A stretch of DNA of 9,644 nucleotides from an uncultured Rhizobiaceae group bacterium (lineage in GTDB: Bacteria; Pseudomonadota; Alphaproteobacteria; Rhizobiales; Rhizobiaceae): the NCBI GenBank assembly GCA_937923355.1, contig CALAIO010000136.1, positions 1-9,644 on the forward strand, in the 5' to 3' direction. Within the stretch, counting starts at the first letter, position 1; every line of letters begins with the position of its first letter. A model generated the notes under the pieces. It was not told the origin of the DNA. It did no database searches and worked only from the letters and a program-made list of their open reading frames with translations. The translations under genes were made by a program, and so were the position numbers. Positions 4,301 to 9,135 of the stretch are shown here, piece by piece.

Positions 4301-5296
4301 ATGAGCAAAAAGAAACCTGTCGTCATAGTAACTCGCAAACTCCCTGATTCTGTTGAAACCCGGATGCGTGAATTGTTTACAACGACACTCAATTTGCAAG
4401 ACAAAGCCTTAAGCGAAGCACAATTAATTGAAGCGGTTCAAACTGCTGATGTCCTGGTGCCAACGGTTACGGATAATATTGATGCAGCCTTAATCGAAAA
4501 AGCTGGCCCGCAATTAAAACTGATCGCAAATTTCGGTAATGGCGTGGATAATATTGATGTAGCGGCAGCAGCTAAAAAAGGGATTACAGTCACCAACACG
4601 CCTAATGTTCTGACAGAAGACACGGCAGATATGGCAATGGGTTTGATGATTGCTGTCTCAAGACGTTTTGTGGAAGGCGCGCAAGCCATTAACAAAAATG
4701 AATGGCATGGTTGGTCGCCGACATGGATGCTGGGCAATCGTATTTGGGGCAAGCGCCTGGGCATTATCGGCATGGGTAGAATTGGTACAGCAGTCGCAAG
4801 ACGCGCCAAGGCGTTCGGTCTTTCCATTCATTACCACAATCGCAATCAGGCAAGCGGCGGCGTAGAAGACGAGCTGGAAGCAACCTATTGGGACAGCCTG
4901 GATCAGATGTTGCCGCGCGTTGATTTCCTATCAATCAACTGCCCTTATACAACAGAAACATACCACATGCTTTCGCAAGAACGCTTGGCTTTGATGAAGC
5001 CTGGTTCTGTCATTATCAATACAGCACGTGGCGAAGTAATCGACGAGAAATCTCTAATTCTGGCAATTTCTCACGGCAAGATTGCAGGAGCGGGTTTGGA
5101 TGTCTTTGAAAATGAACCGGCTGTAAGTCAGGACCTCATGAAGCTTGTCAAAAAAGGCAAGGTTGTTGTTCTACCTCGCATGGGTTCTGCAACCAGAGAA
5201 GGTCGTGTTGAAATGGGCGACCGTGTTCTGATCAACATCAGAACCTGGGTGGATAGTCACCGCCCACCAGATCGCGTCTTGCCAATTGATGCTTGA
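4301..5296 (+). CDS. D-2-hydroxyacid dehydrogenase, glyoxylate/hydroxypyruvate reductase type, with Arg at the catalytic His position
   Basis: The 331-residue protein belongs to the NAD(P)-dependent D-isomer-specific 2-hydroxyacid dehydrogenases, which reduce 2-keto acids such as glyoxylate or hydroxypyruvate. The catalytic domain flanks a Rossmann domain with GMGRIG (157-162). HNR at 179-181, after the second strand, suggests NADPH preference. Arg243 (INTARGEVIDE) and Glu272 (GLDVFENEP) match the usual catalytic Arg and Glu. Where the family has His in P-H-x-G-S-A-T, this protein has Arg293 (LPRMGSAT). Activity is therefore uncertain. The rest of the C-terminus, EGRVEMGDRV and HRPPDRVLP, is normal. 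The length is usual. The ATG at 4301 has only a weak GGA about 11 bases upstream. The kinase gene follows after 14 bases. I withhold a symbol because gyaR, ghrB and serA-like names cannot be separated here. Confidence 0.85.
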   Translation: MSKKKPVVIVTRKLPDSVETRMRELFTTTLNLQDKALSEAQLIEAVQTADVLVPTVTDNIDAALIEKAGPQLKLIANFGNGVDNIDVAAAAKKGITVTNTPNVLTEDTADMAMGLMIAVSRRFVEGAQAINKNEWHGWSPTWMLGNRIWGKRLGIIGMGRIGTAVARRAKAFGLSIHYHNRNQASGGVEDELEATYWDSLDQMLPRVDFLSINCPYTTETYHMLSQERLALMKPGSVIINTARGEVIDEKSLILAISHGKIAGAGLDVFENEPAVSQDLMKLVKKGKVVVLPRMGSATREGRVEMGDRVLINIRTWVDSHRPPDRVLPIDA

Positions 5297-5310
5297 TTGG
5301 AGCTGAACTT

Positions 5311-6348
5311 ATGAAAGCCATCACCTTTGGCTCTGCAATGATTGATATCATTACAGTCGTTAGCTCACAGTCTATTGAACAGCTTTCGCTTTCAAATTCA
5401 AACCGCCAGTTTCTACTTGTAGAACCCGGTCGAAAAGTCGAAGCAGAAACCATTACCCGTCATATCGGCGGCGGTGCGCTTAATACGGGAGTTTGTTTTT
5501 CGAAATTGGGATGTGAGGCCAGCCCTATTGTCAAAATGGGCGATGATGTTCCGCGTGATTACATCGTCAAAAACTGCACTGATCATGGTTTAAACATGGA
5601 CAGAGTTTTAATCGACGAAACCCAATCAACCGGTTCTGCCGTGATGATTGCAAGCCATGAGAAAAACGCTGCAATTTTCACCCAGCGCGGCACCAATACG
5701 TCGCTTGTTCAATCGGACCTTGATGCGGTCAAGCAGCTGGAAGCCGATATTGTGCATGCAGCACCGCTTAGTGGTGACTCGGCCGATATGCTTCCAATTA
5801 TTTCTGAAATGGCAAAATCTGCGGGTGCATTTTTCTCTTGTAATCCAGGTATTAAGCAAATCACAACGCGGGCAAATACGGTGTTATCTGCTGCAAAAAA
5901 CATGTCGCTGATTTCAATTAATGAGGTGGAAGCTGCAGCAATGGTGCCAAGTCTTTCTGCGCTCAATGATAGTCTTTCATGGGCAACGCCTGCGAAAAAC
6001 GATCCTGCCATTCATGCGCAGGATGTCGAGATTTGTTTAAAGCATTTTTGCGAAATTCTTCATGCCCAAGGGCCGCAATATATTCTGATTACCCACGGAT
6101 CAAAAGGCGCTTATCTTTATGATGGCGAAACGCTTCACCATCAAGATGTAATCAAAACAACTGTGGCAGGAACGGCTGGCGCGGGCGATTCATTCGTTTC
6201 AACCTTGGCCTGGGGTTTGCGTTCTGGCCATCCAGCTCAACAAGCACTCCTACAAGCAGCTCATAATGCTTCTTCCGTGGTTTCATTTGTGAATACAACT
6301 GATGGTTTGTTAAGCGCGGATGAGTTGATGAAGCGCGCCTCATCCTGA
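5311..6348 (+). CDS. PfkB-family carbohydrate/nucleoside kinase
   Basis: A 345-residue ribokinase-fold kinase that probably phosphorylates a sugar or nucleoside with ATP. The first PfkB signature is HIGGGALNTGVCFSKLG (51-67). The second is GTAGAGDSFVSTLAWG (287-302), with the anion hole and catalytic base in GAGD (290-293, base Asp293). The Asp that commonly opens the DTxGAGD motif is Gly287 here. ILITHGSKGAYLY (258-270) is the usual ATP-site strand. The substrate cannot be told from sequence. ATG 5311 has GGAG eight bases upstream; a TTG at 5293 overlapping the preceding stop is in frame but unsupported. It probably forms an operon with the dehydrogenase, 14 bases apart, suggesting linked sugar-acid or glycerate metabolism. 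The last codons, TCA TCC TGA, lie within a dispersed palindromic repeat, so the C-terminus may have been reset by that element. Confidence 0.85.
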   Translation: MKAITFGSAMIDIITVVSSQSIEQLSLSNSNRQFLLVEPGRKVEAETITRHIGGGALNTGVCFSKLGCEASPIVKMGDDVPRDYIVKNCTDHGLNMDRVLIDETQSTGSAVMIASHEKNAAIFTQRGTNTSLVQSDLDAVKQLEADIVHAAPLSGDSADMLPIISEMAKSAGAFFSCNPGIKQITTRANTVLSAAKNMSLISINEVEAAAMVPSLSALNDSLSWATPAKNDPAIHAQDVEICLKHFCEILHAQGPQYILITHGSKGAYLYDGETLHHQDVIKTTVAGTAGAGDSFVSTLAWGLRSGHPAQQALLQAAHNASSVVSFVNTTDGLLSADELMKRASS

Positions 6349-6363
6349 GTTTGTCGAAGGGTT
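6341..6363. repeat. Dispersed palindromic repeat, copy 1, between convergent pfkB-family gene and dut
   Basis: The core CCTGAGTTTGTCGAAGG (6344-6360) differs from the copy in coaBC (8494-8510) at two of 17 bases. Short arms ATCCT (6342-6346) and AGGGT (6358-6362) pair with one G-T wobble. The element supplies the TGA stop of the kinase gene and touches the TAA of dut, filling the whole 13-base gap between convergent genes. I know this motif family as a common short repeat in alphaproteobacteria. It may act as a weak bidirectional terminator, but there is no T tract. Confidence 0.7.
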
Positions 6364-6811
6364 AAGCCCCCGTTGAGCCAAAGCCACCTGAGCCTCGATC
6401 GGTTTCACTGGCAAGGGAACCTTCTGTGATTTCAACTTGCATCACGGGCGCGATTACCATTTGTGCGATGCGCATGCCGCGTTCGATTTTGAACGTTTTC
6501 TCACCGTGATTAATCAGTAGAACCATCACCTCGCCCCGATAATCAGCGTCAATCGTGCCAGGGGTGTTTAGGCAGGTAATGCCGTTCTTATAAGCAAGTC
6601 CTGAGCGTGGGCGAATTTGCCCTTCATGGCCTTTTGGAAGTTCCATCACCAGACCAGTCGGCACGAGCAAGCGCTTGCCAGTTTTCAATATCAGCGGTTC
6701 GTTCTCGGGAACAGCTGCGCGTAAATCCATGCCCGCTGCATCTTGCGTTTCATAGGATGGAAGCTCCAACCCTTCAGCATGTGGCATTCGGATGATGTTT
6801 AAGGTGCTCAT
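6362..6811 (-). CDS. dut: Deoxyuridine 5'-triphosphate nucleotidohydrolase (dUTPase)
   Basis: Dut hydrolyses dUTP to dUMP and pyrophosphate, keeping uracil out of DNA and feeding dTMP synthesis. The 149-residue protein has all five trimeric dUTPase motifs in order: AGMDLRAA (26-33), RPRSGLA (67-73), [14 protein letters not shown] (82-95) with catalytic Asp88 and the uracil-pocket Tyr91, RGMRIAQMV (111-119), and the C-terminal lid [10 protein letters not shown] (139-148). The length is normal. The ATG overlaps the stop of the VOC gene in an ATGA (6811-6808) and lacks its own close ribosome binding site, so translation is probably coupled. It is the last gene of coaBC-VOC-dut. Confidence 0.97.
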
Positions 6812-7209
6812 CGTGGATCATACGCAAACTCCAGGCGGTTGCCGCCTGGTTCATTGATAAAGAAATGCACTTTTGGCCCTGCACCAGAAAATTCAGGTGA
6901 ACATTCAACGGCCACATTAGGCCAATCCTTGATTTTTGCAAACGCCTCATTGAGTACTTCTTCTGTCGGCACCTTAAAAGCCACATGATGAAGACCGATA
7001 TTACCTCTGCGATCAAAAGCAATTGGCGTTCCAGACTTGACCTGCCAGATGGTCAAAACAGATGCGCCATCTGAAATAAACTTGGATGGATACTCAGGCT
7101 TGCCGCCCACCTCTTTCCAGCCCAGACAATCGGTGAAGAATGAAACAGTTTTATCAAGGTCTGCGACGGTGAGACCTAAATGGTCGATGCCTTGGGTGAG
7201 TGCGGTCAT
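6808..7209 (-). CDS. VOC (glyoxalase/bleomycin resistance/dioxygenase) superfamily protein
   Basis: A 133-residue protein made of two paired beta-alpha-beta-beta-beta modules. The first opens with [19 protein letters not shown] (7-25), the second with [10 protein letters not shown] (71-80), and the end is [11 protein letters not shown]. His10, His75 (or His74) and Glu128 stand at the usual metal-ligand positions of the vicinal oxygen chelate fold. The reaction is unknown: glyoxalase-like, dioxygenase-like and resistance proteins share this fold. ATG 7209 has GGAG six bases upstream. The frame stays open back to 7308, but that extension overlaps coaBC and carries no family similarity. It lies 34 bases after coaBC and overlaps dut by four, so it is cotranscribed with housekeeping genes. 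Confidence 0.85.
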
Positions 7210-7243
7210 GGAGTGCTCCAGAATGGGTAAGAGGTCAGCGCTA

Positions 7244-8674
7244 TCATACTTCGATTGTTTCCACTTCGAAATGTTTAATAATCTCATCGACAAGTTTTTG
7301 CGCCACATCTTGTTTGTTCATTTGCGGCCAGCTTTCAATGCCGGATTTTGTCAGCCGTTTTACGGTGTTTTGATCGCCACCCATAACACCGCCTTCCGGT
7401 GAAACGTCGTTCGCGATAATCCAGTCCGCGTTTTTGCGCTCCAGTTTTGCTTTCGCATGTTTCTCGAGATTTTCAGTCTCAGCCGCAAACCCGATGAGCA
7501 GGGAAGGTCGCTGTTTATGATGTCCCAGGCCTTTGAGGATATCCGGATTTTCGGTGAGCTTCAGCGACGAGGGGCCTTTGCCGTTTTCCTTTTTCATTTT
7601 TTGATTCGAGGCATCGACAGAGCGCCAGTCCGCAACCGCCGCAACCATGACCGCAATGTCAGCGGGTAGAGCAGTTTCGACTGTTTTCTGCATTTCACGC
7701 GCAGTTTGAATATGCACGGTCTCGCAATTTTCGGGCGCTGGTATATCAACCGGACCAGAGACCAAAACCACCTCTGCCCCTGCATTGGCAAGCGCTTCCG
7801 CGATGGCGTGGCCTTGTTTGCCAGATGAGCGATTGGCAATATAGCGTACTGGGTCAATCGGTTCATGCGTTGGGCCGGAAGTTACAATCGCCCGTTTACC
7901 AGTCAGAGGTTTTGGCGTGTTGTCAGGCACAAGCAGGTTGCCAATCGCGCCCAAAATTTCCATCGGTTCAGCCATGCGGCCAACGCCTGCTTCTCCGCTT
8001 TCAGCCATTTCGCCTGCGTTTGGGCCAATGAAATGAATGCCGTCGGATTGAAGCCTTGCGAGATTTCTTTGCGTTGCAGGATGCGACCACATGAGTGGGT
8101 TCATGGCGGGGGCGATTAACACGAGCTTATCCGTCGCCATCAAAACCGTCGAGGCAAGATCATTGGCATGTCCTTGCGCCATCTTCGCCATCAAGTCTGC
8201 GGTGGCAGGTGCAACGACAATCAAATCCGCCTCACGCGAAAGACGAATATGTCCGATATCATGTTCATCATCACGGTCAAAAAGTTCTGAGAAAACTTTA
8301 TCATTTGCGATGGCTGAAACGGAAAGCGGCGTCACAAATTCCTGCGCTGCTTTCGTCATGACGGGGCGAACAGATGCACCCCGTTCTCGCAAACGACGAA
8401 TGAGATCCAGACATTTATAAGCAGCGATGCCTCCCCCAATAATGAGCAATATACGTTTCTTGGATAAATCAATGTCATCACGTAATCCCTCACCCTGAGC
8501 CTGTCGAAGGGGAAGGGTTGGTCTTGCACTTGCTGACCTTGTAATTGAAGGCTTATCAACCTCCCCCAACAAAAGCCTCGCTTCTTCCTCCATCGAATTG
8601 CCGTTTTTGGCGGCGCGTTCGCGAAGAGCTTGCTTTGTCTTTTCATCCAAATTACGAATGGTTATACTGGGCAT
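7244..8674 (-). CDS. coaBC: CoaBC with an N-terminal FitA-like ribbon-helix-helix DNA-binding domain
   Basis: CoaBC joins cysteine to 4'-phosphopantothenate using CTP (CoaB) and decarboxylates the product with FMN (CoaC), giving 4'-phosphopantetheine for CoA. In this 476-residue protein residues 1-40 are a ribbon-helix-helix fold like FitA antitoxins: strand PSITIRN (2-8), helix around 10-24, and NGNSMEEEARLLL (24-36). Residues 41-69 are a linker; 54-65 are encoded by a dispersed repeat. CoaC spans about 72-250, with active His142 (GHIRLSREAD) and PAMN (189-192). Ser226 (SGEAGVGRM) stands where E. coli has Cys158. CoaB spans about 258-470, with Asn281 (NRSSGKQG), AAVADW (345-350), Lys372 (KLTENPDIL) and GFAAET (395-400). 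The start at ATG 8674 has GGGAG five bases upstream; an ATG at 8686 lacks one. No start codon lies between the two parts, so CoaBC seems to be made only as the fusion. Confidence 0.92.
   Translation of the reverse strand: MPSITIRNLDEKTKQALRERAAKNGNSMEEEARLLLGEVDKPSITRSASARPTLPLRQAQGEGLRDDIDLSKKRILLIIGGGIAAYKCLDLIRRLRERGASVRPVMTKAAQEFVTPLSVSAIANDKVFSELFDRDDEHDIGHIRLSREADLIVVAPATADLMAKMAQGHANDLASTVLMATDKLVLIAPAMNPLMWSHPATQRNLARLQSDGIHFIGPNAGEMAESGEAGVGRMAEPMEILGAIGNLLVPDNTPKPLTGKRAIVTSGPTHEPIDPVRYIANRSSGKQGHAIAEALANAGAEVVLVSGPVDIPAPENCETVHIQTAREMQKTVETALPADIAVMVAAVADWRSVDASNQKMKKENGKGPSSLKLTENPDILKGLGHHKQRPSLLIGFAAETENLEKHAKAKLERKNADWIIANDVSPEGGVMGGDQNTVKRLTKSGIESWPQMNKQDVAQKLVDEIIKHFEVETIEV
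8487..8517. repeat. Dispersed palindromic repeat, copy 2, read in frame inside coaBC
   Basis: Arms CCCTCACCCT (8487-8496) and AGGGGAAGGG (8508-8517) pair over eight of ten bases around an 11-base loop. The core CCTGAGCCTGTCGAAGG (8494-8510) recurs at 6344-6360 with two changes. On the coding strand it is read as LPLRQAQGEG without breaking the frame, and it sits in the linker between the ribbon-helix-helix and CoaC domains. This is like protein-coding palindromic elements known from Rickettsia, though the sequence family is different. Confidence 0.8.
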
Positions 8675-8687
8675 GAATGCTCCCATT

Positions 8688-8704
8688 TGATTGCATTGAT
8701 ATCA
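8688..8704. promoter_or_regulatory. Operator-like palindrome 1, proximal to coaBC
   Basis: TGATTGCATTGATATCA: half-site TGATTGCA, one central T, and an imperfect partner TGATATCA. It lies 13 bases upstream of the coaBC ATG, just before the ribosome binding site, over the expected transcription start. Fifteen of 17 bases match the perfect site at 8720-8736. Confidence 0.6.
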
Positions 8705-8733
8705 TATATAATTAAAAATTGATTGCATTGCAA
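8705..8733 (-). promoter_or_regulatory. Candidate promoter of coaBC-VOC-dut
   Basis: On the minus strand TTGCAA (8733-8728), exactly 17 bases, then TATATA (8710-8705). The -35 falls inside palindrome 2 and the -10 directly abuts palindrome 1, so a protein bound to either site would block RNA polymerase. Predicted transcription would begin within palindrome 1. Confidence 0.5.
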
Positions 8734-8736
8734 TCA
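8720..8736. promoter_or_regulatory. Operator-like palindrome 2, distal to coaBC
   Basis: TGATTGCATTGCAATCA is a perfect inverted repeat of 8 bases (TGATTGCA / TGCAATCA) around one T. The spacing from palindrome 1 is 32 bases start to start, near three turns of DNA, so both sites face the same side. The flanks are also similar (ATCATAT follows both). The region is shared with the upstream end of the cold-shock gene control region. Confidence 0.65.
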
Positions 8737-8880
8737 TATGAATTGTCTTGTAATAGTCTCATTTTCCGTGTATTGCGTAAGTACCTGATATTTTGCCGAA
8801 CTACTGACTAGTCTTGCGCCCTTCACATAGAACCGCGCCCTACCACGATTACTTCCCAAAATTGACGACAAAGGCGCTCC

Positions 8881-8896
8881 CACTCAATACCGAGTG
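8881..8896 (+). promoter_or_regulatory. Small hairpin in the cold-shock gene leader
   Basis: CACTC (8881-8885) and GAGTG (8892-8896) pair around a six-base loop, 29 bases before the start codon. A TTGACG at 8862-8867 is the best -35-like hexamer nearby, but the matching -10 at 17 bases (CAATAC) is poor, so I do not assign the promoter. If transcription starts further upstream, this would be part of a longer 5' leader, as is common for cold-shock genes. Confidence 0.25.
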
Positions 8897-8925
8897 TGAA
8901 GTCTATTTTAAAAAGGAAAATACTC

Positions 8926-9135
8926 GTGACTAATGGCACAGTAAAATTTTATAACGACCAAAAAGGTTTTGGTTTCATTCAACCTGAAGATGGCGGCACA
9001 GACGTATTCGTACATGCTACAGCACTAGAGCGTGCAGGCATGTCAGGTCTTTCAGAAGGCCAAAAAGTTGCTTTCACAACAGCTGTAGACCAGCGTTCAG
9101 GCAAAACAGCAGTGGACACAATCCAGGCTGCATAA
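8926..9135 (+). CDS. cspA: Cold-shock protein, CspA family
   Basis: A 69-residue single cold-shock domain that binds single-stranded RNA and DNA and acts as an RNA chaperone. It covers the whole family length: TNGTVKFYNDQKGFGFI at the start holds RNP1 (KGFGFI), and VFVHATAL holds RNP2. The start is GTG 8926 with AAGGA eight bases upstream. An in-frame ATG at 8896 would add ten residues foreign to the family and lacks a good site. Codon use is rich in ACA, GCA and GGC, as expected of a well-expressed gene here. It is monocistronic: divergent from coaBC and followed by a strong terminator. Alphaproteobacteria carry several paralogues, so the symbol names the family and does not claim strict orthology. 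Confidence 0.93.
   Translation: MTNGTVKFYNDQKGFGFIQPEDGGTDVFVHATALERAGMSGLSEGQKVAFTTAVDQRSGKTAVDTIQAA

What the first reader, a model, noticed from the sequence alone, without database searches (positions are those of the whole stretch)
7244..8674. CoaBC made as a fusion to a FitA-like ribbon-helix-helix DNA-binding domain
Seen: one open frame links a ribbon-helix-helix segment (residues 1-40, PSITIRN ... NGNSMEEEARLLL) to a full CoaC-CoaB with its active-site motifs. Between the two parts there is no in-frame ATG, GTG or TTG, so a separate CoaBC start is not evident. Known: FitA-type antitoxins bind their own promoter through this fold and hold a PIN toxin through a C-terminal part; that C-terminal part and any toxin gene are absent here. 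Inference: the DNA-binding half of an antitoxin has been captured by a central enzyme, which could let CoA synthesis, or substrate occupancy, control its own transcription, or could add a dimer contact to the CoaBC oligomer. I do not know how widespread this architecture is in Hyphomicrobiales.
Basis: partly seen in the sequence, partly recalled or inferred. Interest (0 to 1): 0.75.

Follow-up and report, generated by a model that had tools for sequence, protein, structure and literature searches.

The report
Coenzyme A enzyme carrying antitoxin DNA-binder
In this and many related bacteria, CoaBC, an enzyme that makes coenzyme A, carries at its front a small domain of the FitA antitoxin family, and a paired DNA box lies before its gene in nearly all carriers examined but not before the gene of the relatives examined that lack the domain, so the enzyme is predicted to switch down its own gene.

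Summary
One frame (7244-8674, minus strand, 476 aa) joins a FitA-type ribbon-helix-helix (RHH; PF22513, 60 bits) to a full CoaBC (TIGR00521, 419 bits); 117 of the 120 best database hits have the same three domains. The RHH is under purifying selection about as strong as the enzyme's; the linker is not. New: paired 8-bp boxes (TGATNNCA, 9-bp pitch) precede fused genes. Of 74 unique upstreams 72 score at least 11/12, against 0 of 104 unfused (none above 9); held out, 17 of 19 against 0 of 20. Stray boxes inspected in 25 carrier genomes have no RHH or PIN gene nearby. RHH residue 3 co-varies with box base 4 (Ser: TGAT 69:0; Thr: TGAC 11:4; not corrected for kinship). Unfused relatives can hold a complete FitA-like antitoxin + PIN toxin operon in the same slot with similar boxes, and one fused gene keeps a relic of an antitoxin tail. 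Best reading: a toxin-antitoxin autoregulatory cassette captured by CoaBC, giving a PutA-like self-regulating enzyme. DNA binding, repression and any coenzyme A signal are untested.

The parts
7244..8674 (-). RHH-CoaBC fusion gene, 476 aa, start ATG 8674
8555..8674 (-). FitA-like ribbon-helix-helix domain (residues 1-40)
   Evidence: PF22513 60 bits; PDB sequence hit FitA; AlphaFold model and Foldseek; omega 0.04-0.10 in relatives
8465..8554 (-). variable linker (residues 41-70), predicted disordered at 42-64
8488..8509 (-). copy of a dispersed REP-like repeat, translated as part of the linker
7943..8458 (-). CoaC flavoprotein domain (4'-phosphopantothenoylcysteine decarboxylase)
   Evidence: PF02441 114 bits; 6tgv
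7361..7906 (-). CoaB domain (phosphopantothenate-cysteine ligase)
   Evidence: PF04127 236 bits; 1u7u, 5int
8720..8736 (-). predicted operator 1: TGATTGCA-A-TGCAATCA, -62 to -46 from the start codon
   Evidence: perfect inverted repeat; scored
8688..8704 (-). predicted operator 2: TGATATCA-A-TGCAATCA, -30 to -14; 32 bp start to start from operator 1
8680..8684 (-). GGGAG, ribosome-binding-site-like, before ATG 8674

Best explanation
The window encodes CoaBC fused to a FitA-family ribbon-helix-helix domain that is predicted to bind the paired TGATNNCA boxes in front of its own gene and so likely represses its own transcription. Shown: the fusion, its conservation and selection, the boxes, their absence before the unfused coaBC genes examined, and their covariation with the domain. 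Inferred: RHH chains of the CoaBC oligomer pair through the flexible linker, each dimer reads one 8-bp box, and the enzyme particle takes the place of the PIN toxin as the scaffold that holds neighbouring dimers on tandem boxes; binding then blocks the promoter and sets a ceiling on CoaBC. Inferred origin: FitA/FitB-type toxin-antitoxin operons repeatedly occupied the slot just before coaBC, and deletion of the toxin and of the antitoxin tail left RHH plus operator joined to coaBC. Speculative: coenzyme A thioesters, which inhibit mycobacterial CoaB, or the enzyme's substrates tune the binding.
For: RHH identity. Conservation: 117 of 120 best hits. Selection: omega 0.044-0.096 for RHH, 0.042-0.107 for CoaBC (four sets each), 0.278 and 0.370 for the linker (two sets; elsewhere saturated). 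Operator: a 17-mer of two TGATNNCA/TGNNATCA boxes with 1-nt spacer scores 12/12 in 59, 11 in 13 and 10 in 2 of 74 unique fused upstreams (120 nt); 0 of 104 unique unfused exceed 9; shuffles of the fused upstreams reach at least 11 in 0.6%. Held out, rule fixed beforehand: of 19 new fused upstreams 17 score 11-12, 1 scores 10, 1 scores 8; 0 of 20 unfused exceed 9 in about 300 nt each. The 7 fused loci of the second clade, whose upstream DNA I first saw after the rule was set, are 7 of 7 at 11-12. Genome-wide: in 25 carrier genomes an exact direct- or inverted-type 17-mer lies within 100 bp before coaBC in 19 (coordinates against 43 and 44) and in 0 of 5 unfused; of the other sites, those fetched have no RHH or PIN gene nearby. 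Covariation: RHH residue 3 Ser goes with TGAT-majority boxes 69:0, Thr with TGAC 11:4, Fisher p 7e-11, not corrected for kinship. Origin: antitoxin (PF22513) + PIN toxin (PF01850) operons before unfused coaBC; L151 linker RLKTSRDEILALGRRP against free antitoxin P0140 RKKPSIDEILALGVKP, highest z (4.3, 0 of 60 shuffles) of 74 linkers. Precedents: PutA, RHH fused to an enzyme and autogenous repressor (PMC5293562, abstract and section 17); CoaBC dodecamer inhibited by CoA thioesters (PMC7794376, passages).
Against: No binding, expression or ligand data. The 17-mer rule was drawn from looking at most of the 74 sequences; only the held-out sets are clean. Loci are related: fused against box has only 4 independent pairs on starred branches (4 of 4 concordant, p 0.125), and residue 3 against box type agrees in 2.5 of 4 on average, with 1.5 uninformative. 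One held-out carrier (L264, G474) lacks the box (8/12); L151, L193 and held-out L263 score 10. Of five fused RHHs with Thr3, three have TGAT-majority boxes and one is tied. 6 of 25 carrier genomes have no exact 17-mer of the two scanned types before coaBC. Promoter prediction at the window is weak (3 promoter-like sites on both strands, 1.4 expected), and the upper box also scores as terminator-like on the same strand. The Foldseek E-value for the 44-residue model is weak. Only 34 of 74 fused starts have a GGAG/GAGG/AGGA before them. In 45 of 65 fused genes (9 of 74 dropped because the pattern for the CoaC strand missed them) an in-frame ATG/GTG/TTG exists in the linker, so a second, shorter product cannot be excluded there.
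Confidence: 0.75

Rival explanations
1. The RHH is kept for oligomerisation or localisation of CoaBC (for instance an extra dimer contact), and DNA binding is lost or incidental.
For: RHH domains dimerise (general knowledge); CoaBC is a dodecamer in mycobacteria (PMC7794376, passages), so extra dimer contacts are conceivable.
Against: It predicts neither the box before nearly every fused gene and no unfused gene examined nor the covariation of residue 3, which by RHH analogy lies on the DNA-facing strand, with box base 4. Strand residues T5 and R7 are invariant and N8 nearly so in two alignments.
Confidence: 0.12
2. The boxes are a leftover of a toxin-antitoxin operator, or belong to another regulator, and no longer have a role with the fused protein.
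For: Boxes of the same kind sit before free antitoxins at this slot.
Against: 97 of 104 unfused upstreams (5 of the 104 have a module) lack even one exact half-site, whereas boxes persist in carriers whose CoaBC is 57-83% identical to the window's and in two separate clades. In L151 RHH and box type changed together.
Confidence: 0.1
3. The fused protein still works as the antitoxin of a PIN toxin encoded elsewhere, so CoaBC is an addiction-linked enzyme.
For: L128 and L129 have a complete RHH+PIN operon just before the fused gene.
Against: The window's linker shows no similarity to antitoxin tails (z -0.15); the operons in L128 and L129 carry their own full antitoxin; a PIN profile built from four such toxins finds nothing in the window. 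PIN genes elsewhere in the genome could not be sought, since no genome is held.
Confidence: 0.03

Closest known systems
PutA, trifunctional proline utilization A (E. coli type)
   Same: N-terminal RHH fused to a bifunctional metabolic flavoenzyme; autogenous transcriptional repressor; adding the E. coli RHH to an RHH-less PutA gives DNA binding with Kd 58 nM (PMC5293562, abstract and section 17)
   Different: Other enzyme and pathway; FitA-type rather than PutA-type RHH; switching ligand unknown
FitA antitoxin of FitAB (Neisseria gonorrhoeae; PDB 2h1o, 2bsq) and relatives
   Same: Same RHH family and closest solved structure; FitAB sits on a 36-bp piece of its own promoter as four heterodimers (PMC3920265 and PMC5086665, passages). 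Recalled, from no call: the FitA half-site is TGATAGCA, which fits TGATNNCA
   Different: No toxin-binding tail and no toxin in the window; the partner on DNA would be CoaBC itself; boxes in tandem at 9-bp pitch
CoaBC of Mycobacterium smegmatis (6tgv) and CoaB of E. coli (1u7u)
   Same: Same enzyme domains
   Different: No RHH in these: the best match in the chain starts at query residue 71 (6tgv)
BirA and NadR (recalled, not tested here)
   Same: Cofactor-pathway enzymes that also bind DNA and regulate
   Different: Helix-turn-helix, other pathways, other targets

Membership tests
Bifunctional CoaBC (TIGR00521) | full-length match above the curated cut-off | tested here: met
   419 bits, cut-off 219.7, residues 75-470 of 480 to model 2-392 of 392
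FitA-like RHH (PF22513) | match above the gathering score over the whole domain | tested here: met
   60 bits, cut-off 27, model 1-37 of 39
FitA antitoxin | C-terminal toxin-binding tail | tested here: not met
   window linker has no similarity above shuffles to 114 antitoxin tails, 110 of them free antitoxins (z -0.15)
FitA antitoxin | PIN toxin gene beside it | tested here: not met
   PIN profile search of all loci and the window: no hit in the window at E 1e-3; present in relatives
FitA antitoxin | operator before its own gene | tested here: inconclusive
   two box pairs at 8688-8704 and 8720-8736; binding not testable here
RHH trigger enzyme of the PutA kind | N-terminal RHH on a metabolic enzyme in one chain | tested here: met
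RHH trigger enzyme of the PutA kind | represses its own gene | not testable with these tools
   needs gel shift and reporter assay
RHH trigger enzyme of the PutA kind | substrate or product switches DNA binding | not testable with these tools
   CoA thioesters inhibit mycobacterial CoaB (PMC7794376, passages); effect on this RHH unknown

The most novel reading that the evidence does not exclude
CoaBC of many Hyphomicrobiales is a coenzyme A-sensing repressor of its own gene, made more than once by collapse of FitA/FitB-type toxin-antitoxin operons parked in front of coaBC: the toxin was deleted, the antitoxin's DNA-binding half and its operator were kept, and the essential enzyme replaced the toxin as the scaffold on DNA. 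The slot shows the stages side by side: complete toxin-antitoxin operon + coaBC, toxin-antitoxin + fusion, fusion with an antitoxin-tail relic, clean fusion, bare coaBC.
Probability: 0.4. Interest if true: 0.85.

Novelty: new variant of a known kind. Interest (0 to 1): 0.72.

Why it matters
How bacteria set the level of coenzyme A beyond feedback on pantothenate kinase is, to my knowledge, poorly understood. A CoaBC that would read its own promoter makes this testable with one protein and one DNA fragment. It would also be a clear case of a selfish toxin-antitoxin cassette turned into a housekeeping regulator, with intermediates still present, and would add CoaBC to PutA as an RHH-enzyme fusion.

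Tried and rejected
Internal start of CoaBC: rejected for this window (no start codon between codons 36 and 76), not excluded elsewhere (45 of 65). Frameshift or assembly error: rejected. A regulon beyond coaBC: exact direct- and inverted-type 17-mers were sought in 25 fused and 5 unfused genomes; in the loci fetched from these hits none away from coaBC has an RHH or PIN gene nearby. Not every hit was fetched, the third box arrangement (TGNNATCA first, then TGATNNCA) was not scanned, and the genes at stray sites were not annotated. One common origin of all fusions: not settled. On the CoaBC tree of 178 rows the fused label needs 10 changes, at least 5 forced by starred branches, and the second clade (L179-L185) stands apart; no AU test was run, and the quick tree warns of joined long branches. 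The polarity of the first event cannot be shown: toxin-antitoxin loci are nested among fused ones. A profile of whole free antitoxins was too loose for tail relics, so linkers were compared one by one with shuffles (for the 9 genes missed by the CoaC pattern the linker was cut at residue 90). FitA's operator letters were sought in print: 1,506 papers hold one of the two 8-mers, 15 were listed, none about FitA by title; they stay recalled. Print on this fusion: searches found no paper; two papers, unrelated by listing; three, general by listing; one search found 31 papers and listed 15, of which I opened PMC7794376. Other papers opened: PMC3920265, PMC5086665, PMC3384007 (passages) and PMC5293562 (abstract, outline, section 17). 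Subscription papers and preprints are not held, so earlier mention cannot be excluded.

Full report
WHAT IS THERE. The minus-strand frame 7244-8674 encodes 476 residues: FitA-like RHH (1-40), a variable linker (about 41-70), CoaC and CoaB. The AlphaFold model from 52 sequences has the two RHH helices (11-24, 28-39), residues 42-64 below pLDDT 50, then the CoaC fold (mean pLDDT 82.8, pTM 0.60). The isolated RHH model (44 residues, 27 sequences, mean pLDDT 85.2, pTM 0.55) is closest to FitA, then Arc, CopG and VapB12, all at E above 0.2. The CoaBC part matches M. smegmatis CoaBC 6tgv.

HOW WIDESPREAD. Of the best 120 hits listed (8000 scored), 117 have the RHH. Whole genomes, query 476 aa; the match lists are cut, so hand counts of rows starting at residue 1 or 2 are lower bounds: class-wide sample of 240 genomes (184 with a match), only the centre genome itself; order sample of 249 (242 with a match), 12; family sample of 297 (295 with a match), 65, and a 66th, G286, is fused by profile. 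Named carriers include Phyllobacterium, most Mesorhizobium loci, Zhengella, a Nitratireductor, Pseudochrobactrum and two Brucella (ex-Ochrobactrum) species; Mesorhizobium denitrificans and M. xinjiangense, a second Nitratireductor, Chelativorans, Pseudaminobacter, and the Rhizobium, Agrobacterium, Ensifer and Shinella loci are unfused..

SELECTION. Nei-Gojobori omega: Mesorhizobium RHH 0.044, linker 0.370, CoaBC 0.107; Phyllobacterium RHH 0.057, CoaBC 0.042; Brucella-like set 0.096 and 0.080; pair L124/L125 0.072, linker 0.278, 0.060. In the window's own small clade synonymous sites are saturated and no ratio is given; several other dS values exceed 1 and are rough.

THE BOXES. In the window TGATTGCA-A-TGCAATCA (8720-8736) and TGATATCA-A-TGCAATCA (8688-8704) lie 32 bp apart, start to start, before the start codon. 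Such boxes were then read before other fused genes, a rule was set (two boxes TGATNNCA or its complement, one base between, 12 fixed bases) and scored in 120 nt upstream: 74 unique fused upstreams (from 88 fused loci, the window among them) 59 at 12, 13 at 11, 2 at 10 (L151, L193); 104 unique unfused (from 106) none above 9; shuffles of fused upstreams 0.03% at 12 and 0.6% at 11; random windows elsewhere in the same loci 0.17% at 11, none at 12. The unfused set includes five loci with a toxin-antitoxin module, scored before coaBC and so not at their antitoxin's promoter; L015 is of unsure status because its contig ends near coaBC. Held-out test: 20 carriers not fetched before, one upstream a duplicate; of 19, 12 at 12, 5 at 11, 1 at 10 (L263), 1 at 8 (L264); 20 unfused with about 300 nt each: 7 at 9, 10 at 8, 3 at 7. 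Successive exact half-sites are most often 9 bp apart (68 cases); the best 17-mer ends a median 32 nt (10-72) before the start; 97 of 104 unfused upstreams have no exact half-site, 7 have one.

SPECIFICITY IN THE GENOME. TGATTGCANTGATTGCA with up to 2 mismatches in 9 genomes (6 carriers, 3 unfused): the only exact matches, in G001, G002 and G005, and the single best match in G003 and G006 (1 mismatch), lie by coaBC; in G004 the one match does not. Exact generalised patterns of two of the three box arrangements in 25 carriers and 5 unfused genomes: in 19 of 25 carriers a site lies within 100 bp before coaBC (coordinates against 43 and 44); G258, G360, G443, G252, G450 and G004 have none there; none of the 5 unfused has one there. 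Of the fetched loci, those with an RHH gene nearby are all coaBC.

PROTEIN-DNA COVARIATION. Over fused and antitoxin loci, majority type of half-site per promoter (ties, promoters without a half-site, and RHH hits of the later set with best pair below 10 left out): Ser3 69 TGAT, 0 TGAC; Thr3 4 and 11; other residues 2 and 4; Fisher Ser against Thr p 7e-11, not corrected for kinship. Within fused genes alone Thr3 gives 3 TGAT, 1 TGAC, 1 tie, so most of the contrast comes from free antitoxins. The tree-aware test on the earlier, smaller set has 4 starred pairs: on average 2.5 agree, 0.0 disagree, 1.5 do not differ (one of the two L157 antitoxins left out). Fused against box: 4 of 4 pairs agree, p 0.125 (L015 left out).

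THE SLOT AND THE ORIGIN. A ubiB match on the same strand is found in 65 of 74 fused loci, with median gap 68 nt to the gene (range -1437 to 1287, so not always directly upstream); in the window a csp-like gene stands divergently instead (named by eye). Unfused relatives can carry a complete antitoxin (PF22513) + PIN toxin (PF01850) there: L066, L079, L142, L155 (the L142 antitoxin by my profile only) and L157, which has two antitoxins. Of 20 held-out unfused family members 12 show PIN similarity in the 300 nt before coaBC, three of them only its last part. Of the 20 longer regions then fetched (those 12 plus 8 more unfused) 15 have both RHH and PIN (in L300 about 330 nt from coaBC), 3 (L293-L295) a PIN remnant without RHH, and 2 neither (L305, and L303, a contig end that cannot be judged). 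These genomes come from the upper part of the hit list, so this is not a family-wide rate; in the first set of 104 unfused upstreams only 5 have a module. L128 and L129 have a complete module and then a fused gene. L151, inside the Mesorhizobium group on the tree, has an RHH 83% identical to free antitoxin P0128 but at most 67% to other fused RHHs, TGAC-type boxes, DNA alignable with L070 up to 70 nt before the start codon and again from the CoaC part, not across box, RHH and linker, and a linker with 11 of 16 residues shared with the tail of antitoxin P0140. That looks like a captured antitoxin with box and tail relic. For the window's own RHH the source is not traced, and its linker shows no relic.

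MECHANISM. Shown: fusion, conservation, boxes, covariation. By analogy (PutA, FitAB): an RHH dimer would bind a box, neighbours bind side by side, and the gene is repressed. In FitAB the toxin promotes binding by stabilising the complex that tethers FitA dimers to operator DNA (PMC3920265, passage); CoaBC, a dodecamer in mycobacteria with dimerised CoaB domains (PMC7794376, passages), could do this here through the flexible linker. Whether CoA thioesters, which inhibit mycobacterial CoaB (same paper), change binding is open.

NOVELTY. RHH-enzyme autoregulators are known (PutA); I found none for CoaBC (open-access text; for most hits only listings seen). I rate it a new variant of a known kind.

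Noticed in passing
window 8488-8509 (-) and 6338-6359 (-): Dispersed REP-like repeat CTTCGACAGGCTCAGGGTGAGG, exact in the coaBC linker (translated) and with 3 mismatches at the end of the kinase-like ORF 5293-6348; with up to 2 mismatches 81 copies in G001, 6 in G536, 1 each in three and none in five of ten carriers scanned. Such repeats may lengthen linkers.
   Followed up: partly
L287-L292, L296-L302, L304, L306; L066, L079, L142, L155: Varied FitA-like antitoxin + PIN toxin operons stand before unfused coaBC, most of them directly, so coaBC may be co-transcribed with a toxin-antitoxin module there. (L303 within no range given; it has neither.)
   Followed up: partly
L293-L295: Only the last 23-33 residues of a PIN-like frame match before coaBC, without an antitoxin: apparently decayed modules.
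   Followed up: no
L157, L301: Two antitoxin genes, the first without a toxin, then an antitoxin-toxin pair, then unfused coaBC.
   Followed up: no
window 8675-8895: The boxes lie between coaBC and a divergent cold-shock-like gene (8896-9135 +, named by eye), which could be affected too.
   Followed up: no
window 6362-8674: coaBC is followed by a VOC-like ORF (6808-7308 as listed, overlapping the end of coaBC; an ATG at 7209 would avoid the overlap) and a dut-like ORF (6362-6811); names by eye.
   Followed up: no
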